From Acanthococcus lagerstroemiae (Eukaryota > Arthropoda > Insecta > Hemiptera > Eriococcidae): a DNA stretch of 64,000 nt. Below the pieces are notes generated by a model. That model searched no databases. It was not told the DNA's origin and saw only the letters and a program-made list of their open reading frames with translations. Position 1 is the first letter of the stretch, and the number at the start of each line of letters is the position of its first letter. The position numbers and the translations under genes are program-made. Of the stretch, positions 11,324 to 64,000 are shown piece by piece. The stretch covers positions 320,993-384,992 of the forward strand of contig JAJSSI010000013.1 of NCBI GenBank assembly GCA_031841125.1. Reading direction: 5' to 3'.

Positions 11324-13315
11324 ATGGAGCAATCGTCAGATGAATTTGTGTTTGGGATTCGTAAGTTCAACGGTGTCGATTACTCATCTTGGAAGTTTTG
11401 AGTCATCTCTCTCATAAAGACGAAGAAAGGGTACGAGGCGTTAAATTCTGAAAAGCCTCCAAATACCGCCACTGAAGACATTAAAAATAAATGGACAAAT
11501 GCGGACAACACTGCTCAGGCTGCCATAATCGCGTGCGTTTCTGATTCTCACCTATCGTATCTACAAGACGAGAGTATAAAATCAGCTAAAGACATGATAA
11601 GCAGACTTGATTCCGTTTTTGAAAAAAAGAGTATTTGCACTCGATTCATGCTACGTAAGAAATTATTTACTTTAAAAATCGGTGCTAGTGAATCTCTCAC
11701 AGATGCGTTCCGTAAATTCGACGATATTGTACGCCAGCTCGAATCCGCCGGTTCAACAATAGATCAGCTTGACGAAATTTGTCATTTATTTATGGCGTTA
11801 CCTGATAAGTACCGTGCGGCGATAACGGCATTAGAAACTTTGCCGGAAGAGCGCCTTACAATGGAATACGTGAAGGGTCGTCTATTGGACGAAGAAACGC
11901 GTACGAGTTCAGATGGTATTGCCGAGGACGATCTGACTGCATTTTACACCAATAAAAAAGTTCGTGGTGAGCCGATGCGTCAAGACTGTAGCCGTTTTAG
12001 TGATGACTACAAACGTTCAAATGATAACCGTGCCTGTGATCCGCCAACGTGTACATACTGTGGTAAAGATGGTCATACATTCAACCGGTGTTTTAAACGT
12101 AAGAAAGCCATTTCAAATCCGAGGACCAACAATGCCGAAGCTGATGAACCTGTGTTGTTTTTGACAGAAGCTGAGATCGACGACGGTGGTGCTTCTTGTA
12201 ATTTGGTTGAAGATGACGTTGTTTTTTATCTGGACAGTGGATGTACCGATCATATGGTCAATGATATTCGTTTACTCACGGATGCGGTTTTGGTCGAGTC
12301 CAGCGTCAAGGTTGCGGACAAAAATACCACTATGAAGGCGACTCACCGAGGTATTGTACATGTATCTTTCAATGGTAAGCAAATTCGAATAAGTGACGTA
12401 TTATATGTACCTGAATTAAGGAGTAATTTGCTCTCTGTTGCTGTAATGACCGATAATGGAATGAGTTTATTTTATGACGGTACTAATGTCATCATATCGA
12501 AAAACGGTAAATTTGTCGCTGAAGGTATAAAAATTGGTCGACTTTACAAAATTTCATTTAATAAAATTGACGCAGGTTCGTTTCTTTGTGATGGGAATTC
12601 CGTAGGTAACCTTTGGCATAGACGTTTTGGTCACATAAGTGACAAATACTTGTCCATGATTATTAAAAAAGGACTAGTCGATGGTTTAGACGGTATTAAC
12701 GATAGGTTCATCGATAATTCCAATTGCATTTCCTGCATAAAAAGCAAACAAGTCACGTTGCCGTTTAATGTGGTAGTTAAAAATCGTAGCTCGCGTTTGT
12801 TGGAATTAACACATTCAGATTTATGTAAAATAGAAAATTCAACTCACGATGGTAAATATTATATTTTAACTTTAGTAGATGATTATTCTCATTTTTGTAC
12901 CATTTACTTGTTGAGACATAAGAGCGAGACTTTCGATTGTATAAAGGAATATTTTAATCGCAGTGCCGCGGCGCTTAACTTGAAACCATCTGTTTTACGT
13001 TGTGATAGAGGCGGGGAGTATTCGAGTAACAAATTTAAGGAATGGATGAGTAATAAAGGTATTAAGATTCAATATACGATAGGCTATACCCCGCAGCATA
13101 ATGGTGTCGCTGAGCGAATTAATCGTAGCATTTGTGACAAAATTCGTGCTTTGTTGTTCGATTCTGGCTTACCTAAAGCATTTTGGGGAGAAGCTTGTCG
13201 TTATGCCGTTTTCTGTATGAATCGGTCTCCTACATATGCTCTCGATTTTCGTTGTACTCCGGCCGAGTTATTTCGTGGTAGGAAGCCGCGTGCCGATAAT
13301 TTAAAGGTTTTCTAG
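11324..13315 (+). CDS. copia Gag-protease-integrase part of the polyprotein (internal stops)
   Basis: ATG 11324 opens a frame that meets TGA at 11399-11401 (codon 26), then runs open to TAG 13313-13315. Gag carries the UBN2-type helical region typical of copia. A CCHC zinc knuckle (C-X2-C-X4-H-X4-C) lies near codon 243. The protease active site DSG is at codon 304 in the LDSGCTDHM block. Integrase shows the His-His-Cys-Cys finger (LWHRRFGH ... C-ISC) and the catalytic triad D499, D561, E597 with the canonical 35-residue second spacing. TGA 26 sits where an Arg codon is plausible. A single-base change would make a near full-length copia polyprotein nonfunctional, so this copy is either freshly dead or uses readthrough. 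I infer death. Confidence 0.9.
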
Positions 13316-15337
13316 TGCAAAGCTTTCAGGCTTTTGCATCCTCATGAACGTAAGAAACTTGATAGTCGTTCCGAGGAGTGTATTTTCATTGGTTACTACG
13401 ATTCTGGTTTTCGTCTATGGAGTATCTCCGATCGAAAAGTTAAACTCGCCAGGAACGTGCTATTTATGGAGCATAAAAAGGGCTCGGATTTATTTCAAAG
13501 TAAAAACTCTAATGGTGACAGGTATGCGTTGTTCGACTTAGATAGCGTCACTGCCCGCGATTGTGTCGTCCCTGCCGATTCGACGCCGGTCCAGAATGAC
13601 GAACCTGTTCTCGCGTCAGTTGAGCCAGCCCATGACGAGCCTATTCTCGTGTCGGCTGAACCTGCTGCTCAGAATGATGCGCCTATTCCCGAGCCTGTTG
13701 TACCTCGCCTTGGTGATAGGGTTCGTCGTCCTCCGCCTCACCTCAAAGAGTATGAAGTTAGTGTTAATAATGTCGAAGCTAACGTCTATGATATTCCTGA
13801 TAGAATGGCGGAAATCGAAGGTAGGGAGGATCGCGATTGCTGGTTAAACGCTGCCCAGTCTGAAATAGAGTCCATGAATAAGAACGAGGTTTGGACATTA
13901 ATAAGTCCTCCACCCAAAGTTGATATAATACATTGTCGTTGGGTTTTTAACATTAAACGTCATAGGGATGGTACGATTGATAGGTACCGTGCACGATTGT
14001 GCGCAAAAGGCTGCATGCAGAAAGGTGTTTTTCAATTTTCCGACGTTTACTCTCCGACTGCTAGCTTCGAGTCCATTAAAGCTTTATTGTCATCGATTTG
14101 TCAGTTCGATTTAGATGCCATTCAAATGGATGTCAAAGCCGCTTTTTTATATGGCAAACTTGACACTCCTGTGTACCTGTACCAACCTGAGGGATTCGAC
14201 GATGGTTCAGGCAGAATTTGTAAATTGACGAAATCGATTTATGGTTTGCGCCAGGCCAGCAAATGTTGGTACAAGCGATTCGATGGGTATATGCTCGACA
14301 TTGGTTTCGTGTGTAGTCGGGTCGAGCCTTGTTTGTATTACTCCTTCGATAAAGACACTGTGACATATATCTTATTATACGTTGACGATTTAATCATAGC
14401 TAGTTCATCGTACGATATTCTCAAAAATGTTCAAGGCCTACTAAGTAAGGAATTCGAAATGTCTAAGTCGGCTAGCTTGGACGATACTGTGTTCGTTGGT
14501 CTTAATATTTCGCGCGATCGTAATGCGCATACTATGAGAATTGATCAGATCGAATACGTTCGTCGTTTAGTGACTAAATATGGTATGGATGGTTCAAACG
14601 CCTGCAGTACACCTATGGAAGTTGGCCTATCGCTTTCTAGTTCGGGAACCGAGTGCCTAAGCGTCCCTTATCAGGAACTCATCGGTACACTAATGTTCCT
14701 CACTCGTGGCACTCGTCCGGACATATGTTTCGCAGTATCATATTTGAGTAGATTTCAGAGTAATTATGGTCAGGAGCATTGGAATGCTTTAAAACGTGTT
14801 CTTAGATATTTAAAGTCTACTATGGAAATTTGCCTTAACTTTAACAAGTCCAATAATCCTGGAGTTGATTCGCTATTATGCTTTGTGGACGCCGATTTCG
14901 CCAATGACGTGGAAGATAGAAAGTCTACTACTGGTTTTATATTTTTTCTTTTCAATAATCCGATTCATTGGTGTAGTGTAAAACAGTCTGTTGTAGCTCA
15001 GTCAACCACAGCCGCGGAGTATATTGCCCTAGGTACTAGTTTAGTAGATCTAGTTTGGATCCGTAATTTGTTGCTGGAATTAAGATTGATAAACGATAAT
15101 GCCGTAAGGGTCTTCGAGGATAATCTGAGTACTATCGCGATAACTCAATTCAGTAAAGAAAAAAGAACTAAAGCAGTCGACGTTAAATATCATCTTAGTC
15201 GTGATCTAGTCGGGAAAAATATAGTTCAAGTCGTTCATATAAGTTCAAATCATCAACTAGGTGATATTTTTACTAAATCCGTTTCTCACATTAGGTACGC
15301 TCACATTAGAGATAGAATATTTAATTTTAAGTTGTAA
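13316..15337 (+). CDS. copia reverse transcriptase and RNase H part of the polyprotein
   Basis: This continues in the same frame after TAG 13313-13315, ending at TAA 15335-15337. The first residues complete the conserved integrase-tail block CKAF...HPHERKKLD...CIFIGY, so the TAG interrupts a domain and is not a natural gene end. After an acidic, Pro-rich linker comes the RT: WVFNIKRHRDG, DVKAAFLYG, SIYGLRQASKCWYK and LYVDDLIIAS with catalytic YVDD at about 14378-14389. RNase H follows with DADFAND, STTAAEYIAL and EDNLSTIAI. The final block HQLGDIFTKS closes the protein. RT and RNase H look uninterrupted. Confidence 0.92.
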   Translation, partial: CKAFRLLHPHERKKLDSRSEECIFIGYYDSGFRLWSISDRKVKLARNVLFMEHKKGSDLFQSKNSNGDRYALFDLDSVTARDCVVPADSTPVQNDEPVLASVEPAHDEPILVSAEPAAQNDAPIPEPVVPRLGDRVRRPPPHLKEYEVSVNNVEANVYDIPDRMAEIEGREDRDCWLNAAQSEIESMNKNEVWTLISPPPKVDIIHCRWVFNIKRHRDGTIDRYRARLCAKGCMQKGVFQFSDVYSPTASFESIKALLSSICQFDLDAIQMDVKAAFLYGKLDTPVYLYQPEGFDDGSGRICKLTKSIYGLRQASKCWYKRFDGYMLDIGFVCSRVEPCLYYSFDKDTVTYILLYVDDLIIASSSYDILKNVQGLLSKEFEMSKSASLDDTVFVGLNISRDRNAHTMRIDQIEYVRRLVTKYGMDGSNACSTPMEVGLSLSSSGTECLSVPYQELIGTLMFLTRGTRPDICFAVSYLSRFQSNYGQEHWNALKRVLRYLKSTMEICLNFNKSNNPGVDSLLCFVDADFANDVEDRKSTTGFIFFLFNNPIHWCSVKQSVVAQSTTAAEYIALGTSLVDLVWIRNLLLELRLINDNAVRVFEDNLSTIAITQFSKEKRTKAVDVKYHLSRDLVGKNIVQVVHISSNHQLGDIFTKSVSHIRYAHIRDRIFNFKL

Positions 15338-37985: not shown

Positions 37986-40495
37986 AACAACCGTAACCTC
38001 GCGGCCACCGGCTGCTCCTTGAGCGAATGTCCAATGACGTTCGCAACTGATTCGGTTGTTCACACAGCTGAATTCTCCACATTCGGCCCTCCTGCTCCGG
38101 AGGCGACCTCGCCGACCGATTCATCCGGGTCATCGAATTTTCGCCAGGTCCGAATTTGAGAGATGTGGACATCCATGAGGCCGATTTGCGATCCCTCATT
38201 ACGAAGGTCTTGAACTCGATAAATGTCTCCCGCGATGTTTTGGACAACTGCCAGGGGCCCGATGTACTTCGCTTGCCCCTTCAATGTGACTGGGCGACGC
38301 ACGGCAACGATTTCGCCGACTTGAAGTGTGTCTCCCAGGTAATGCCGACGGTCAAAGTTCTCCTTCATCTTTTCTTGACTGGCAGCGATATGTTCGCGCG
38401 CGATCTCGCGCATAACATCAAGGTCTTCGGCAGCTTCGACCTCTCAAGTAAGCTTAGGAAGCGACAAAACGATATGTCGTGGATAATAGCCGTGAACGAG
38501 CTCGAACGGCGTCCTTCCGGTGGAGCGATTCACTGAAATATTAATATTTCTTTCGATTTCTGGGAGAAATCGGTCCCAATTCTGCGCCGTTGCGTCGATC
38601 GATTCGGTAGCGTAGATGAGGATTTGGGCGTTGAGGATCCGATTTACCCTCTCAACCTGCCCATTCGCCCGTGGGTGGCGAGTTGTAACACGATGGGTAT
38701 TGATTGCCCGTTGCTGGCAAAATTCGATGAATTGCTTCGATGTAAAACATGAGCCACGGTCACTGACGATTGTATCCGGCAACCCAAACTTCATGAAAAA
38801 GCTTTTGAGACACCGCTCAACTTCATCCGTACTGGTGTTCGGAACTGCCCATAACTGGATAAATTTTGTGAAACTGTTGACGAGTACAAATACATGAGCG
38901 TTTCCTGCTTCTGTCTCTTCGAATGGACCAAGGTGATCTACATGTACCTTCTGAAGGGGTCGAGTAGGTGGTGCGATAGTTTTCAGCAAATCCTGTTCTT
39001 TCCCAGAATGGTTCTTCGCGAGCAGACATTCGAGGCATGCCTGAACATGGCAGCGGACGTAACGACGCAATCCGGGAAACCAAAATTTTTGTTTCAGGGC
39101 CGCAACTACTTTTTCTGTGCTGAAATGCCCCAATAAATCATGATGCTGGATGCAGAGCGATTTACGCATCGATTTCGGCACTACAAACAATTTTCTTCCC
39201 GTCTCCCGGTCATGCCGGTACAGAATTCCATTTACAACTTCAAATTCTGGACGGGAGATGATATTACCAACGACGGTTCGAATCTCCGGATCTTGATGTT
39301 GGTGGATTCGAACAATTTCCTCTTCCGAAACGACTCCAAACACCCCAATGTGTGTCCGTAGACACATATCAACCGGTGCTCGGCTGAGCGCGTCAACGTG
39401 TTGCATAAATTCACCCTTCCGATGATGAACAACAAAATCGTATTCTTGCAGCGCGAGTGCCCAGCGTGCGATTTGAGCATTGACTGTCTTGTGCGCGTTC
39501 AAGTGCAGTAGTGCTTGACAGTCAGTGATAACGATGAAATGAATACCCAACAAGAACTGCCTGAGTCGCGAAATTGACCAAACAATGGCCAGCAATTTGA
39601 GTTTTGATGAGTGGTAGCGGCTCTCTTCCTCCGTTGTCCGCTTGCTGACAGCATAGACGAGATGGAGTGGATCTGACGTAGTTTTCCGCTGAAACAGCAT
39701 GCCAGCGATCCCATGCTGAGAAGCGTCGGTGTGGAGCTCCGTGATTGCTCCCGGATCAAATAATTTCAAGACAGGCTCGCGAAGAAGTGCCTGTTTGATG
39801 TCAGCGAATGATGCTGCTTCTTTTTTGCCCCACAAAACTGGTCGATTTTTTTTTGTGAGCTCGGTTAGCGGTGCACTTCGTTGCGCAAAATGACGAATGA
39901 ACTGGCGAAAGAAACTCGTAAGTCCGATGAAACGGCGGACTTCATGGGCGTTAGTCGGTGTTGGAAACTTGGCAATCGCTTCCGTTTTACGTTTCCCAGG
40001 TTTGACGTGTCCATTGGCAATTTCAAAACCGAGAAACTCGATCTTATCATGTGCAAAGAAGCACTTTTCAGGCCGACAAGCCAGGTTAGCGTCACGAAGT
40101 TTAACAAAAACCTGCTTGAGACGTTCCAACATTTCGGGGAACGATTTAGCCGGAATGAGGATATCATCCATGTAGTTGAACGCAATACGATTTCGGAGAT
40201 CTCCTAGAACATGGCTCATTGTTCTAGAGAATTCGGCTGGAGCATTACATAAACCAAATGGCATTCGTGTGAACATACCACTGTCGTTTATCAATACAAA
40301 CGCCGTCTTTGGCTGGGATTCCTGATCGAGTGGAATCTGCAAGTATCCCAGGAATAGGTCAAGCACAGAGAACATAGTAGCTGATGATAACTCCGTGAGA
40401 TGATCATCAATATTTGGCATCGGGAAATTCATGCGACATTTCAGAATTTTCCTGATGGTTATAAAGAACATGCAACATGACACTACCCCACTCAA
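37985..40495 (-). pseudogene. pol: Ty3-type pol (RT-RNase H-integrase), 5'-truncated
   Basis: Read right to left, the frame starts inside RT: NFPMPNIDDHL, FSVLDL, RMPFGLCNAPAEF and an intact YMDD at 40163-40174. RNase H has HTDAS and TDCQALL, but its conserved Glu position reads Lys (SSKLKLLAIVW). DALSR ends the domain. Integrase has the His-His-Cys-Cys finger, VDHLGPF, SDRGSCF and NGQVERVNRI, the D, D, E triad. A TGA at 38446-38444 interrupts the tail, after which the SH3-like block (GDTLQVGEIVAVRR, YIGPLAVV) follows in the same frame. Gag, protease and the RT fingers are missing; the 5' cut lies near 40495, close to a MITE. No LTR is seen. Confidence 0.88.
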
Positions 40496-55104: not shown

Positions 55105-56305
55105 GTATGTTCATTCATTAGTTTGTATCACTAAATTTGCAGGGCACTTCACTTTTCACTCACCACACTACAGGAAGACCGTGGGAATACGGGCCTTCAT
55201 AATTGCGTATCTATACAGAATATCTGTAGATGATTCCATCCTTCCACCTTCTTTGTAAATGTGCCACTCAATCCCAAAGTTGCAAAAATTATTCTAAACT
55301 TTGAAAAAATAATTAACTACTCCGTAATGAAAATTGCACTCATCATGCAAACTCGACCGCGTCAATAGGGGAGGGGGAGACCTATAAGAACCCGTTCTGT
55401 GAACTAAAACTGTAGGTGAATATTACTAGTTGTAAGAGCAGGAAGTATACAGGTCCTCTTCAAAATGGAAGTTGAAATGTTATTATTTGTCCATATGTTA
55501 TGAGACAGCGCGCCGCTAGTTTACTAAAAAAAAAAAATTTATAGTCTCCACTGTGGTAGCCAGATTCCGTGACTCTCACTCACTCCACTGTCACGAACCT
55601 ATCGGAAAATCCTCTAACTTGTCTTTCCTTGCTTTTCCTTCTTTCCTAATCTTTTCCACCTACCGTTATTTTTCCTTGACTTCGTGACGTCACTTTTTCC
55701 CTAAAGGTAGACCGGTCGTCTATTCCTCGAGGAGAGTGTTTCGGAATCGGATGGAAGCGTGTTCTCTCTTTTCGTTTTTCGCTATTTGTGATCTTTAATA
55801 TATTCCGTGTTCTACTTTTATGTGAAGTTGTTCTTCGGGTTGTGCTCGTGAGTCGACTCAACGTTGTCTGAGCCCACTGCGCGCGTAGCTTCGCCGTTTT
55901 AGTAACTGTCACATAGTTAGTCCACGCCGTCCTCAGGTGACCGCGTGGCACGTGAATCTCTTTTCTACACGCCGACCGTCCAACTCGACCTCTCGCCGTA
56001 CTCAACGGTATCAATCCACCAAGGCGGATCAACGTACTTACACGTCGCTGCATCCCGGTTTGATTTCTCGTTTAGTTATAGTTTCCGGTTAGGATAAGAT
56101 CGGGCTACTAATTAAATGGGATCTTGCCATGCCTCGGTACCTCTCTCCCGTTGAGTTACCTCCTCACTACTGCGGGTAATCCTCAAGTCTAGAGCCGTCC
56201 TCCAACCCCCTGTGAAACTCATCGCTCGAGCTAGTCGTGAGCAACGCGGGTGTGGTGTTCTCCATCTCCCAAGTGCGTCAACCCATTTCTCGGTTACCAC
56301 ATATA
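55105..56305. other. No gene found; probable 5' LTR region of the SGNH-Ty3 element toward its right end
   Basis: 55105-55550 is unassigned AT-rich DNA. From about 55560 the composition shifts to the CpG-containing style of the element to the right. The 5' LTR should end just before the primer-site-like sequence at 56311. I could not find its left border, because no second LTR copy lies in the window. Confidence 0.4.
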
Positions 56306-56310
56306 ATTTG

Positions 56311-56330
56311 GCACCCAGAACGTGAGGCTT
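56311..56330 (+). other. Candidate primer binding site of the SGNH-Ty3 element
   Basis: TGGCACCCAGAACGTGAGGC follows ACATATAATT. It starts with TGG as tRNA 3'-CCA-complementary sites do, and resembles the lysine-tRNA type of site with changes. The tRNA is not certain, and the LTR end cannot be verified. Confidence 0.45.
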
Positions 56331-57506: not shown

Positions 57507-57656
57507 ATGTCCCAATCCCAACCTGAGTCTGATAAGTCTTCGTATTCTCGTAATCCAAAGTCTCGAATCGTTATTCACGAAAATTTCGAAAAGCAGTTCG
57601 ACGAACTAGGAAACGAAATCCCGACTGACGAGAACGTTCTTCATTCCTCGCTTACT
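57507..57656 (+). CDS. Small open frame upstream of gag
   Basis: ATG 57507 encodes about 50 residues rich in Ser, Glu and Asp (SQSQPESDKSSYSRNPKSR) before running into the duplicated segment at 57656. It is not in the gag frame. It may be an original gag start separated by the insertion, or a short leader frame. No domain. Confidence 0.3.
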
Positions 57657-58290
57657 GTTGAGTGGTGTAAACCCCACCTTACCCTACTACACGCTCACGA
57701 CATATCCCCGTTCTCCTGCACCGTACTGGCTGTAACGGTTCAACTGTGGCTCGCTTGTACTTGCTACAAGGAGTTTCGTTATAACGGTTGATGTTGGGTA
57801 TCTAGACCAAGGGTGATAAATACGGCAGTATTTATCATGAGCTTATGGCATCTCAGAATCAGAAATTCTTCCTGCCAAAAGCTCAATCATGTTCCCCAGT
57901 CCTTACGTTTGGCAGGAAGAATTTCTGATTCTGAGATGCCACACGTTTACGCATGTTCCCAAGTTGTTTTTTTTTATTGGCAGGAAGAATTTCTGATTCT
58001 GAGATGCCAGTCTATTCTTCACGTTTTTGGGATCTCGGATGTTCTGGGTTCAACAAACACTCGAGCATCCACGCTGGGATTATTTGTGATACTCGTTCGC
58101 GTGGGAGGGGGTGTTGAGTGGTGTAAACCCCACCTTACCCTACTACACGCTCACGACATATCCCCGTTCTCCTGCACCGTACTGGCTGTAACGGTTCAAC
58201 TGTGGCTCGCTTGTACTTGCTACGAGGAGTTTCGTTATAACGGTTGATAAATACTGCCGTATTTATCACCCTTGGTCTAGATACCCAACA
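57656..58290. mobile_element. Fold-back insertion with 46-bp inverted arms and a 137-bp direct duplication
   Basis: Arms 57792-57837 and 58245-58290 are perfect 46-bp inverses, starting TGTTGGGTATCTAGACCAAG. Each arm contains its own hairpin, GATAAATAC/GTATTTATC. Direct copies 57656-57792 and 58112-58248 are 137 bp with one A/G difference (at a CpG). The second copy runs straight into the right arm. No conventional target duplication is visible. The structure ends six bases before the gag ATG. Confidence 0.8.
57846..58009. repeat. Three identical 32-bp units, one inverted
   Basis: 57846-57877 (TGGCATCTCAGAATCAGAAA...) occurs inverted at 57910-57941 and again at 57978-58009. The first two form a 96-bp hairpin element; the third is an extra end. 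The ends TGGCA/TGCCA are themselves inverted. Confidence 0.85.
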
Positions 58291-58296
58291 CTTACG

Positions 58297-59337
58297 ATGA
58301 CTACTCCAAAGCCAAATCCTACGATGGAGGAGATGATGAAACGCCTCCTCGAAAACCAAACCTCGAATCAGACTAATCTAGAGACAATGATCAACACTAG
58401 TCAAACAGAGCTTAAGGCTGAATTTAAGACCAGTCAAGCTGAACTCAAACGCGAATTAATGGCGAATCAATCGAAAACTGATTCGAGATTCGAACTGATC
58501 GAAGCAAAACTGGAACAGGAGAAAGTTTCAAACCAAGTCGAAATGAAACAACTCATGACCACGTTCCGCGAACAGATTCTCGACGAAATCCCTGATCAAA
58601 TTGAACACACGTTACGATCTCGACAGGTTGAACCGCATGAACGGTTGAATTCGACTTTCTCGATCCCTAACGCTCAATCTACCGGGATTACGGATCGCAG
58701 CTCACGAGTGTCCTTCGCAGATGGAACGAACCCGGCCAAGGAACTACGAACGCCGAATACACGTCAACCACCGGAGCGGAATCTAGTCCAACAATGATCT
58801 ACCCGAGTCAGTAATCGTACGTTACGTTCCAATTCTACTTCTCAATCGTTATTATCGACCACCATCACGAAGCTACCCTCGATGGCAAAAGACTTCGCCG
58901 ATTGCCCGATCTATCAGATCGACGACAAACAAACTCCACCGCAGTACGTCGATTGCCCGATCTATCAGATCGACGACAAACAAACTCCACCGCAGTACGT
59001 CGATCAATTTGAGACAACGATAGGCCGCTTTGTAGATGACGAGGAAAGAGCGGTGCGATTTCAGAATCATTTGACACAAGGTGGAAAGAAACTAACCTCA
59101 TTATATCGCACTGACATGACCTACGACGAACTCGTAAACACTTTTCTCGATAAAAATTGGTCCTCGAAAAAGAAGCATTTATACTATTCTGAATTCTTGA
59201 CCAAAGACTTTAGAAACGTTCCACACGAGAAGCTAATCGAGGAAGTGGAGAGATGGTATTACATCTTAAATGATACCACTTTCTTCCAGAATCCTGAAGA
59301 CCTTATTTCGGGAATTAGCTTCCCGTATGCCGTTTGA
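58297..59337 (+). pseudogene. Gag of the SGNH-Ty3 element (coiled coil plus capsid-like region)
   Basis: ATG 58297 starts MTTPKPNPTMEEMMKRLLEN, followed by a long Gln/Glu/Lys coiled coil. TGA at 58795-58797 interrupts the frame, which then stays open to 59337. After a 17-residue tandem duplication (58899-59000) comes a capsid-like helical region: QFETTIGRFVDDEERAVRF, TYDELVNTFLDKNW and KLIEEVERWYYIL. Near 59300 the reading moves by one base into the frame that carries SRMPFDLKTEIY, so a small indel is inferred. No CCHC knuckle is present. The TGA sits where CGA would read Arg. This is a decayed copy; coding is still easily read. Confidence 0.75.
58899..59000 (+). repeat. 51-bp in-frame tandem duplication within gag
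   Basis: Two exact 51-bp units (58899-58949 and 58950-59000) encode DCPIYQIDDKQTPPQYV twice. Identity between units implies a recent duplication. Confidence 0.95.
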
Positions 59338-60450
59338 CCTGAAAACGGAAATCTACCGAGATGATCCTGAAACGATCTCAGACACCGTGATGATCATCAG
59401 TCGCTGGCTTGAATTAAAACATAGCCTCAGCCAGAGTAAACCATCTCGAGAGACCCGTTCAACATCGCCACCGAGAACGAGTCGTCGAAACGTCAACGTC
59501 CTTGAATATCAACATCCAGATGAGGAACTTCACGAAGTCACTTCATCCAGTGAAGAACCAAACGTTACACCTCGCGAATTTCGTATACCGCTTAACGATC
59601 ACGAAGACGATCAGCCTGCAGTCCATACGATCGCGAAACCTAGTCTACCTGGTGTGTTGAAAAACGAGACTATCACGATTCTCGGAGACGTCGTCGCTGT
59701 GCAGCTAGCCAATGCACTACTCGGGACCAACCCGAAAACCTTTCTTCCGCGTCGAGCCGTCACATGTATGCAACATCTGACTCTCGAGAAACTCTGGAAA
59801 GAGATGCCGTCGCACTTCGACGAAGTGACAAGCACCGTAATTCTCGCTGTTGGAGTCAACGACTTGCAATAGTCCGACCTCGACCTACGATCTTTCCGAA
59901 CAAACTTTAAGACATTTGTGGAAGACTTAATTAACAAAGCGAGATGCCAGAAGATTATTTTTGTTGAGATGTTCCCGCCATACGGAGATCTTCCCGATGA
60001 TCTGTGGTCCCGTATTTGCTTTTATAACAAGATGCTGTGGGACCTCAGAGAAGCGATGAGTGGCCTAGCTTACGTCATGCGAATCTTTGACGTAATGGCC
60101 CGAACAGAACCGCCTCGACCATACATCGGCCTCCAGCGATGGAACCAATCCATCCCAAAAAAGAACCTGAGATTAAACTTCGACAGGTATCGTAAAATTG
60201 ACGCTCGCGGTTTCGCATGCCCATTCGCGTGGACTGATAAAGCTCATCCCGAAATCGTGAAAATATTCGATAACGAAGTACGACCGTGGATATCAAAGAA
60301 GAACGTATCCCCGTCACCAAACGAGCAAGACCGGACCATCGTTAGCATGATTAAACAGACGTGGAGCGCCAAGTACCGAAAAATGTGCTCGAACGGTATC
60401 ATCTACCTCGAAGTAGGGAATTACGTCCTAGCCGCCCTAACCCGTCGTCT
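59300..60450 (+). pseudogene. SGNH/GDSL hydrolase-like domain in the Ty3 polyprotein
   Basis: In the second forward frame, after the end of the capsid region and a Ser/Arg-rich linker, the blocks are: TITILGDVVAVQLANALL (block I, GD-Val at 59684-59692 where GDS is usual), VILAVGVNDLQ (GxND at 59852-59863), FVEDLINKARCQKIIFVEMF and PPYGD, FYNKMLWDLREAM, and GFACPFAWTDKAHPEIVKIF (Asp 60236-60238 and His 60245-60247, as in DxxH). Spacings of about 56 and 128 residues fit SGNH hydrolases. A TAG at 59870-59872 interrupts it. The nucleophile Ser is replaced by Val, so this copy is likely noncatalytic. Such a domain is known in CR1-type LINE ORF1, not, to my knowledge, as a normal Ty3 part. Alternative: an unrelated Rossmann-like fold. 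Confidence 0.65.
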
Positions 60451-62460
60451 ATCATCTCAAAGACAGCATTCGATCAGATGCGACAAGCTAATTCGGGAAT
60501 AGATTTTCCCACCCGACCAACGCATAACGGTGATCTCGTTAACGCCACCGGAGATCCTCTCGACGCCGAAATCGACGTGACGCTGCGGTTTACTTTTAAG
60601 AACGCCCCGCCACACGACATATTTGAGTATGATTTCACGATAGGGACGAATCTCGCTCCAGTATGCTTACTCGGACGTGATTTTATCAGCCACTTCCTCG
60701 CGATCATCAACATTGCGGAAAATCGAGTGACGATTCAAGCGCGGGGAGAAGTTTTCGAGATTCCAATCGAACATCGGCCACCACCGGTTGTCTCGTACAC
60801 TGGCCCATCAAAAGCCAGCAACCACGTTCCACCCGCCGATAATCCAGAGCATGTCCCGCAGTTACGTATCATCCCGTACCCGGGGCACGATGGCCGAATA
60901 TCTCCGGAGGAAGAACCCTACCCGGGGCATGTCAACGTTGTCCACCCGGGCATCAAATTTCCGAATGTTCCCGTCAGCCAACTAGAACCACCAGCGAAAT
61001 GGACTCCGGATCCAATGAAAATGGATGAATCGATCAGGCAGTTAATCGAGATGTTCCCTGACGTCTACAACAACCGTATCGGGAAGTTCAAGCCGTTTCG
61101 ATATTCATTTCATCTAAAGAATCCCGCTACAACGATCCGAGTCAAACCGTATCCTATTCCAAGGAGCGCTGAGAAATCCGTTGATGACATTATCCGCGAT
61201 TATCAGAAAGATGGAATCATCGTAGAATCGTATGCGCCCCACCGAAACAACCTAGTCTGCGTACCGAAGGCTAATGGAGAATGGCGCGTATGTGGAGACT
61301 ATCGTGAATTGAACAAGAACCTCATTCCACCGAACCACGAAGTACCCAAACTCGAAATTTTGAAAACACGTTTTACCGGTACAACGATCTACACGGCACT
61401 GGATATGAAAGCTGCATTCCTGCAAATCGAGCTCGCAGACAAATCATCAGCGTATACGACATTCGTACACAAAGGCCAACCCTGGCGATACACTCGATTG
61501 CCGTTTGGAACGACCGAGAGCCAGGCAGGGCTCTTGTCGGCACTAAACCAGACTCTGCGCGGAACAGAAGATTATACACAATGGTATGTCAACGACATCG
61601 TTATCGCGTCGAAAACGCCGGCCGAACATTTACAACACCTGCTCGAAGTCACGAAACGACTCCAGGCCGTGGGGTTCACGATCAACTCCAGCAAATGTAA
61701 ATTCGCACAACAAGAAATCCGCTTTCTAGGTTTCGAATTGAATTCGACGGGTATTCGCCCTAGTCATGAGAATACCCAGGGCATCTTAGACCACCCGACT
61801 CCACGTAACATTCCGGAAGTCCGCAGTTATTTGGGCGCGGTAAACTTTTTCCATGCCCATATCCCCGAATGCGCCCGAATTCAAGAACCGATCGCCCGCC
61901 TCCTGAAAGGGAATATACCTTTCACCTGGGGAAGTGAACAAACCCAGGCCAAACGTGATCTCGAAGAGAAATTGAAAGAACGCATACTGCATTATCATCC
62001 AGACTGGAGTCAGGATATTCATATCTTGGCGACTGGGGGCTTGAAAGGCCTTGCCGGAACGGTATTCCAGTTTGATGCCGAAGGAAATCCGATTCCGTTA
62101 GCGTTTGTGTCCCGTGCTCTTAGAGGAGCAGAAAGCCGTTACACCACCGGAGAACTTGACCTCCTCGCGGTTATCTACACCTTAAAGAGATGCTCCTATA
62201 TGACAGCTATGAGACCGGTAAAAATCCACACACGTCCGCTACCTCGTGAACTTCTCAAGGCGTCGCCATCACTGTCACCTAGACTCGTGAAATGGGCCTT
62301 AACACTGTCCCTGTACCAGACTGAATTCATGGGACTCCAATCACCGGTCACACGCCTCGCTAAATACCATCAAGGCTTACTGGATGAGGAGACCTCTGAA
62401 GAAACGACCAACCCGTTGAGTCCTACACCTATCGAGACTCCCCGGAAAACCGTGACATGA
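60361..62460 (+). pseudogene. pol: Protease, RT and RNase H of the SGNH-Ty3 element
   Basis: The open frame, ending at TGA 62458-62460, starts within the protease. The Asp-Thr-Gly triad is not found where SSIISKTAFDQM begins; a small deletion with a frame change at about 60440-60450 is inferred. The second protease block LLGRDFISHF is intact. RT shows VCGDYRELNKNLIP, YTALDMKAAFLQI and LPFGTTESQAGL. Its active site reads YVND (Asn codon 61591-61593). RNase H retains GELDLLAVIYTLK but the TDAS and TDH positions read TGG and THTR-like. The 700-residue frame is otherwise uninterrupted, so these are substitutions rather than large lesions. Confidence 0.85.
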
Positions 62461-63756
62461 CCCGACAATGGTGTCCACCACTTTGGGGCAAAACCTAGCC
62501 CAAACCTGTTAAAGACATTTCGTAATTTGCGACAGGCACAGGAAGCCGATGTCGAGCTTTACGACCTCTGTACGAAATTCCCGCACCAGTTCCGGATAGC
62601 AGATGGACTCGTTCAACGCCTGGGACGAGACAGAATCTGGCGCGTAATTGTACCTTTCCAGCTGCAAAAGGAGATATGTCAATACTACCACGTCTATTAT
62701 GGACATGTTGGGATCTCCAAAACCACGAACATCATTCTGCGAACGTTCACGTTCCCGAGCGTGAAATCCCTCGTGGAGAAAATTGTTTCATCTTGCCATA
62801 TCTGCGCAACTAGTAAAAATGCACCTACCAACGTCCGCCTCGAACCCGCACACATCCGAACTACGAGACCACGGGAAGTACTGTCGATCGACCATTTCGG
62901 CCCCATCTCGAAAGGCCGAGGGGGAGTCGATCGTATTCTTGTGGTTACCGATGCGTTCAGCGGCTTTACGAAACTTTATGCGGTGAAGAGCGCCGATACA
63001 AAATCTAGCATCCGTGCGCTGGAACGGTATATCGAGCAGGAAGGAAAACCTGAAACGATTCTCTCGGATAATGCATCGTGTTTCACGAGTCACGAGTGGA
63101 TCCAGCATTGGCAACGAAGGCAAATACGAATCCGTCATGTCTCGCCGCATTCACCGAATGCCAACGTCGCCGAAAGACGAATGGCCCGCATAGCTGAGTT
63201 AATACGAATGAACGTATCTCCCGAGAAGCAGGGAAAGTGGGCTGAACTGCTTCCAGACATTGAGAAAACAATCAACGAAGTGGAACTTCGTACGACAGGA
63301 TACCCTCCTGTAACGGTTCAACATTTAATTCCCGTCTCCGAACCGTTGGTCGATACTCTGAACCTCCCGACACCCGTCATCCAGGCCGACCAGGTGTATA
63401 CCCGAGTTTTTAATCGGCGCAAGGCAGATCAAGAATATCGTGATAATCGCCTGCACGAAAAGGGAAGAAAACTCTGACCTGGCGATTACGTATACGTCGC
63501 GACTTTTCCTGTCTCCTCGAAGCTACACAACATCTCGGCTAAACTCTGCCGGAAAGCCAGAGGACCTTTTCGCGTCGTCAGGGAGAAAACACCGAACTGC
63601 TACATTGTCCAAGATCTTGACGATGGTCATACCGAGACACAAAACGTCTGGAACCTAATCTTTCGGATGAGTCCTAACGAAAATCAGGGACCCGAGAATC
63701 TAAGTCGATCCACCGTTAAGACTCTTAATCCTAAAACGTCATCTCTCCCGAAATAG
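62461..63756 (+). pseudogene. Integrase of the SGNH-Ty3 element
   Basis: It continues in the pol frame after TGA 62458-62460 and is interrupted by TGA 63475-63477 before the final TAG 63754-63756. The zinc finger has the His...His...Cys-x2-Cys pattern (YYHVYYGHVG ... SSCHICATSK). The core has IDHFGPIS, LSDNASCF and NANVAERRMARI for the D, D, E triad. The tail block PGDYVYVATFP and CRKARGPFRVV, and DLDDGHTE, is the SH3-like end. Both TGAs fit C-to-T changes of CGA. The triad itself is intact. The last 240 bases of the window after 63756 are AT-rich; a 3' LTR, if any, lies outside. Confidence 0.87.
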
Positions 63757-64000
63757 TTCAAAAACCTTATGTGCTCCCGAGACTTCATTTCTTGATCTCT
63801 TCCCGTCCTTCCCGTACCCGGGGCACGACTGTCTTATTGTAAATATATATATAAATAATTGATACGTTAAAAATTGTATATAATGTATATAATGTATTTG
63901 TACATATCAATTTTCCACATATTTTTCTTTTCGTTTTTCTTATTTATAATCCTGTTTGTAAATATGTACAGTTCCATGGACATCAACCGGCAATATAAGC
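63757..64000. other. Downstream flank, no gene found
   Basis: AT-rich, with a TACCCGGGGCACGA motif at about 63815 that also occurs inside pol at 60876 and, changed, at 60922. No polypurine tract or LTR start can be shown before the window ends. Confidence 0.4.

What the first reader, a model, noticed from the sequence alone, without database searches (positions are those of the whole stretch)
59300..60450. SGNH/GDSL hydrolase-like domain inserted between capsid and protease of a Ty3-type element
Seen: after a capsid-like Gag region there is a block with TITILGD, AVGVND and TDKAH motifs, spaced like blocks I, III and V of SGNH hydrolases, and no zinc knuckle, followed by protease, RT and integrase. 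Known: SGNH/esterase domains occur in CR1-family LINE ORF1 and in Oskar, whose OSK domain also lacks the catalytic Ser. Inferred: a Ty3 lineage captured an SGNH fold as part of Gag-Pol, perhaps as an RNA- or lipid-binding module, with the Ser already lost (GDV). I am not aware of this architecture being standard in Ty3.
Basis: partly seen in the sequence, partly recalled or inferred. Interest (0 to 1): 0.9.

Follow-up and report, generated by a model that had tools for sequence, protein, structure and literature searches.

The report
Oskar-like domain inside retrotransposon Gag
A jumping element carries, where its RNA-packaging domain usually sits, a worn-out esterase-type domain that resembles part of Oskar, the insect germ-cell protein, which opens a new question about where that part of Oskar came from.

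Summary
The block is real and not a one-off. It is the middle of a young Ty3-type LTR element: its LTRs differ at 1 of 750 sites. The window copy is broken by stops, frameshifts and a 635-bp insertion. The genome holds 58 matches to the domain's C half, 26 of them in stop-free frames of 1000 aa or more, plus ten more distant retroelement frames found with the OSK profile. The domain is under strong purifying selection (median dN/dS 0.086). Profiles place it in the SGNH fold; with three lineages pooled, the best solved match is the OSK domain of Oskar (E 4e-4), then the CR1-LINE esterase (0.012). Nine copies pass Pfam's OSK cut-off. Best guess: a dead, mostly basic SGNH domain doing the RNA-binding work of the missing zinc knuckle. 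Whether OSK came from such Gag domains, the reverse, or both from an older source is open. The fold could not be modelled, and RNA binding is untested.

The parts
55552..56301 (+). 5' LTR (750 bp, TGTGG...CCACA); its partner lies past the window end, at 65538-66287 in extended window coordinates; CCAC on both flanks
56309..56324 (+). primer-binding-site-like stretch beginning TGGCACCC (role inferred; the tRNA was not identified)
57507..58797 (+). N-terminal Gag, split by the insertion; 58192-58797 is coiled-coil-like by eye
57656..58290 (+). 635-bp insertion in the Gag N-terminus with TGTTG...CAACA ends and 5-bp duplication CTTAC (57651-57655, 58291-58295)
58798..59638 (+). capsid-like region, frame change near 59270-59337; conserved in relatives, no Pfam or PDB match
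59639..59869 (+). N half of the SGNH/OSK-like domain (TITILGDVV ... VILAVGVNDLQ)
59870..59872 (+). in-frame TAG stop in the domain of this copy
59873..60310 (+). C half of the SGNH/OSK-like domain (FVEMFPPYGDL ... KIDARG ... TDKAHPE ... RPWI)
60311..62457 (+). protease (frame change near 60440), reverse transcriptase, RNase H
62461..63756 (+). integrase (stop at 63475-63477)
63871..64000 (+). start of an open frame of 398 aa that runs on to about 65064; no Pfam match

Best explanation
A Ty3-type LTR retrotransposon lineage carries, after its capsid-like region and fused in frame to protease-RT-integrase, a catalytically dead SGNH-type domain of the Oskar-OSK / LINE-esterase kind, where a zinc-knuckle nucleocapsid would usually be. 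Most likely it binds the element's RNA for packaging or RNP assembly, as the inactive OSK domain binds mRNA. Shown by computation: family of fold, place, wide distribution, purifying selection, no conserved His, no CCHC knuckle. Inferred: RNA binding, role in the particle, cleavage by the protease.
For: Capsid-like region, domain and PR/RT in this order in the close copies and the ~50% relatives. Pooled profile of three lineages: Oskar OSK 3.8e-4 and 4.2e-4, LINE esterase 0.012, SGNH hydrolases 0.02; 7 of 10 matches are SGNH proteins (that CE2 esterases have this fold is recalled). Pfam at E<=1: Lipase_GDSL_2 in 13 of 16 members (best 1.9e-6), OSK in 3 of 16 (best 7e-7). Over the OSK cut-off: L114, L118, seven retro-B/C frames. 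Whole-genome OSK search: 10 of 12 matches are retroelement frames: RT-, IN- or capsid-region matches in 9, and L154 by likeness to them. dN/dS median 0.086 over the 35 of 465 pairs with dS 0.1-1. No His among invariant or nearly invariant columns. No CCHC in 40 of 40 retro-A and 10 of 10 retro-B/C loci. pI 8.8-9.7 in 10 of 10 retro-A copies computed, 8.9-9.4 in 3 of 3 retro-B. 8 of 12 close copies lack the RT core yet keep the domain, as expected of a Gag part. OSK lacks hydrolytic residues and binds mRNA (PMC13389597, passage).
Against: RNA binding is untested. The LINE esterase binds acidic phospholipids and not oligo(A) RNA (PMC3905857, abstract passage). Retro-C L146 is not basic (pI 5.9). 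CCHC is not universal: 17 of 52 Ty3-like proteins, many partial, show it. Half-domain models were poor (pLDDT 50.8, 56.4). With retro-A alone the best PDB match is a CE2 xylan esterase (1e-3) and Oskar only 0.13. Single sequence L118 finds a lipase at 0.42 and no Oskar. A TesA-type profile is weak: best E 0.35, hhalign probability 5.9%. Capsid unproven. The DTG motif was not found in the retro-B loci.
Confidence: 0.6

Rival explanations
1. The domain is a lipid- or membrane-binding module that targets Gag to membranes, like the LINE ORF1 esterase, and not an RNA binder.
For: LINE esterase 4c1b is the second-best solved match (0.012); [quoted passage not shown] a basic surface suits either ligand.
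Against: The LINE esterase keeps its catalytic residues (PMC3905857, passages); here His is not conserved. OSK, the better match, is an RNA binder (PMC13389597, passage).
Confidence: 0.25
2. The domain is an active or recently active hydrolase that helps the particle cross membranes, as proposed for rotifer LTR elements with GDSL ORF3.
For: GDS is kept in 5 of 31 retro-A copies and in L146; rotifer Vesta elements carry GDSL ORF3 with intact residues (PMC5408684, passages).
Against: No conserved His in the family; block III Asn is lost in many copies; the domain lies inside Gag-Pol and not in an ORF3.
Confidence: 0.05
3. Not an SGNH domain: an unrelated lineage-specific nucleocapsid with chance motif matches.
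For: Window halves alone match nothing; poor models; the TesA-type profile is weak.
Against: Independent profiles agree: Pfam GDSL_2 and OSK, the PDB search, and whole-genome searches; 13 of 31 real copies against 8 of 6200 shuffles were listed by the TesA-type profile at E<=10.
Confidence: 0.06

Closest known systems
Oskar OSK domain (Pfam PF17182; PDB 5a4a, 5cd9)
   Same: SGNH-type, without working catalytic residues; best solved match of the pooled profile; nine retroelement copies over Pfam's cut-off
   Different: OSK belongs to a host germ-plasm protein with a LOTUS domain; here it is part of a retroelement polyprotein
CR1/L2/RTEX LINE ORF1 esterase (ZfL2-1, PDB 4c1b)
   Same: SGNH domain in a Gag-like position of a retroelement; next-best match
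   Different: LINE, not LTR; catalytic residues conserved and active (PMC3905857, passages)
Bdelloid rotifer Vesta1 LTR elements with GDSL ORF3
   Same: SGNH/GDSL domain in an LTR retrotransposon
   Different: separate ORF3 after pol with intact catalytic residues (PMC5408684, passages)
Ordinary Ty3/Gypsy elements (Metaviridae)
   Same: LTRs and PR-RT-RNase H-IN order
   Different: SGNH/OSK-like domain and no CCHC; apart from P0002 (57%), RT relatives are at most 35% identical

Membership tests
Ty3-type LTR retrotransposon | paired LTRs with target-site duplication | tested here: met
   750-bp LTRs with one mismatch, CCAC on both flanks
Ty3-type LTR retrotransposon | order PR-RT-RNase H-integrase | tested here: met
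   RT, RNase H and integrase in order; DTG protease motif before RT in P0002
Ty3-type LTR retrotransposon | Gag capsid fold | tested here: inconclusive
   no Pfam or PDB profile match
SGNH fold family | profile similarity to SGNH proteins | tested here: met
   GDSL_2 curated cut-off (32.9 bits) not reached by any match
SGNH fold family | three-dimensional SGNH fold | tested here: inconclusive
   only half-domain models of low confidence
Active SGNH hydrolase | catalytic Ser and His | tested here: not met
   Ser in 5 of 31 retro-A copies; no His conserved
OSK domain | score over the Pfam cut-off of 27 bits | tested here: met
   met by L114 and L118 and seven retro-B/C frames; not met by L153 and L155 (26.7, 26.3) nor by the window family
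Oskar protein | LOTUS domain in the same protein | not tested
   genome-wide LOTUS search did not complete
LINE ORF1 esterase | part of a LINE with endonuclease-RT | tested here: not met
   followed by Ty3-type RT and integrase, flanked by LTRs

The most novel reading that the evidence does not exclude
The OSK domain of the insect germ-plasm gene oskar came not directly from bacteria but from the Gag of a Ty3-type retrotransposon (or a shared LTR/LINE SGNH pool), taken in as an already dead, RNA-binding SGNH module.
Probability: 0.2. Interest if true: 0.95.

Novelty: new variant of a known kind. Interest (0 to 1): 0.85.

Why it matters
SGNH domains were known in LINE ORF1 and as ORF3 of rotifer LTR elements; a dead SGNH/OSK-like domain inside Ty3 Gag-Pol was not found in the ten paper searches made (open-licence PMC only). 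It gives a second, unrelated-looking use of the same dead fold where RNA is packaged. The origin of OSK is published as transfer from bacteria (PMC7250577, passages); a mobile source of OSK-like domains in the same genome makes a rival origin directly testable by phylogeny.

Tried and rejected
TDKAH as catalytic block V: rejected. One-off insertion: rejected. Half-domain structure models: too poor to search with; no fold search was made. Viral contig scans found no relative. The N half found no homologous protein. TesA-type profile, built from E. coli tesA, its relatives and plasmid arylesterases: weak. Tree of 29 rows: TesA-like bacteria apart from the rest (90/76); retroelement domains plus the host OSK-like gene together (92/83); Drosophila OSK and the LINE esterase on long branches, unresolved; bacterial sampling narrow. 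It does not tell the direction of transfer. My notebook's first PBS place (56609) and Gag start (57509) were wrong: the LTR ends at 56301, the PBS-like stretch is at 56309 and the ATG at 57507. The host gene on C2 as oskar: probable only; OSK is its best Pfam match (5.6e-6 and 2.4e-3 for two exons), but a PDB search with it did not list Oskar.

Full report
What is in the window. The finding lies inside an LTR retrotransposon on the + strand. The 5' LTR is 55552-56301; its partner lies beyond the window and differs at 1 of 750 sites, with CCAC on both flanks, so the insertion is young. Gag begins at ATG 57507 and is interrupted by a 635-bp insertion with a 5-bp duplication. The frame changes near 59270-59337, a TAG stops the domain at 59870-59872, the frame changes again near 60440, and stops lie at 62458-62460 and 63475-63477. 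Pfam finds RT (1.3e-21), RNase H and integrase.

The domain is not a one-off. The host assembly (658 Mb, unnamed) was searched with the C half: 58 matches, 26 of them in stop-free frames of at least 1000 aa. I examined 40 loci (20 given and 20 fetched); 31 of 40 have no stop in the 222-aa domain. In the close copies and the ~50% relatives the order is capsid-like region, domain, protease, then RT. Two database proteins of unnamed source (P0001, P0002) show the C half followed in frame by a DTG protease motif; they are 60% identical to the nearest copies here. Eight of the 12 close copies lack the RT core but keep the domain, protease and integrase.

Fold family. The window halves alone found no SGNH family. 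Sixteen intact copies did: at E<=1, Lipase_GDSL_2 in 13 of 16 (best 1.9e-6) and OSK in 3 of 16 (best 7e-7). A profile of them against the PDB gave 7 matches, 6 of them SGNH proteins: CE2 xylan esterase 1e-3, Oskar 0.13 and 0.15, CE2 endoglucanase E (two chains) 0.15, LINE esterase 0.36; the seventh is SAMD9. That CE2 domains have the SGNH fold is recalled. A whole-genome search with Lipase_GDSL_2 gave 17 matches below E 1, 16 of them copies already listed, none over the curated cut-off. The same search with OSK gave 12: ten in retroelement frames not seen before (L146-L155) and two elsewhere (L156, L157); eight are marked over the cut-off, seven of them retroelement frames and one the host gene L156. 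Of the ten, seven match the window's capsid-like region, eight its PR-RT piece (L146-L153) and one its integrase (L155); L154 matches none but is similar in sequence. The genome-wide OSK search did not list L114 or L118, although both pass on their own; that search scores only its best candidates. With the new lineages pooled (A4), Oskar is the best PDB match (3.8e-4, 4.2e-4), then the LINE esterase (0.012), SGNH hydrolases 8gkd/8gld (0.02) and CE2 (0.022); 7 of 10 matches are SGNH proteins. Against: a single sequence, L118, finds a lipase at 0.42 and no Oskar; a TesA-type profile is weak (best E 0.35; 13 of 31 real copies against 8 of 6200 shuffles listed; hhalign probability 5.9%).

Catalytic residues. 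Block I is GDV/GDI in the window family; across 31 stop-free copies GDS occurs in 5. K-x-D-x-x-G just upstream is in 31 of 31, and I take it as the remnant of block V with Gly for His (inference). No His is invariant or nearly so in A3. In retro-B and retro-C the likely block V tail reads SLSESG and NLSELG, with Ser or Asn for His (by eye). The domain is therefore most likely inactive, yet selected: median dN/dS 0.086 over the 35 of 465 pairs with dS between 0.1 and 1.

Mechanism. No CCHC knuckle occurs in 40 of 40 retro-A loci, 10 of 10 retro-B/C loci or the window element. The domain is basic in 10 of 10 retro-A copies computed and 3 of 3 retro-B, but not in retro-C L146 (pI 5.9). Its place next to capsid, its survival in RT-less copies and the RNA-binding role of the inactive OSK domain (PMC13389597, passages) make RNA binding the best guess. 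The LINE esterase binds acidic phospholipids and not oligo(A) RNA (PMC3905857, abstract passage), so membrane binding is the chief rival.

Relation to oskar. The genome has a gene with introns whose two exons match OSK in model order (48-85 at 5.6e-6, then 83-140 at 2.4e-3), probably oskar; LOTUS could not be tested. OSK is published as nested among bacterial GDSL proteins, with a few fungal sequences as the only other eukaryotic hits (PMC7250577, passages). My tree joins the retroelement domains and the host gene (92/83) apart from TesA-like bacteria (90/76), but branches are long and bacterial sampling is narrow. Direction is unresolved.

Literature. Ten answered searches of the open-licence PMC library listed no paper with this architecture that I recognised; I read passages of PMC5408684, PMC6431247, PMC3905857, PMC5718144, PMC7250577 and PMC13389597 and saw the rest as listings only. 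Subscription journals are not covered.

Noticed in passing
window 57656-58290: 635-bp insertion with TGTTG...CAACA ends, internal inverted repeats and a 137-bp direct repeat, 5-bp duplication CTTAC
   Followed up: partly
window 58896-58997: 51-bp tandem duplication in the capsid-like region (98% identical)
   Followed up: no
window 63871-64000 and on to about 65064 (L161:63-1256): open frame of 398 aa between integrase and the 3' LTR, with a C-x-C-x-C-H stretch and no Pfam match; possible ORF3, not obviously an envelope
   Followed up: partly
L095, L097, L100-L105: eight close copies keep capsid-like region, SGNH-like domain, protease and integrase but lack the RT core: an apparently non-autonomous group
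   Followed up: partly
L158 (G000:C2:42752000-42761500), minus strand: host gene with introns and OSK-like exons, probably oskar
   Followed up: partly
L134 (G000:C11:182059-182235): short frame matching Lipase_GDSL_2 positions 122-178 with an intact DGLHP block V, unlike the retroelement copies
   Followed up: no
window 11594-15337 and 38447-40495: a Copia-type element and another Ty3-type element by their Pfam domains
   Followed up: no
L109/L110 and L118/L120/L121: identical or nearly identical domain copies, suggesting recent spread of these subfamilies
   Followed up: no
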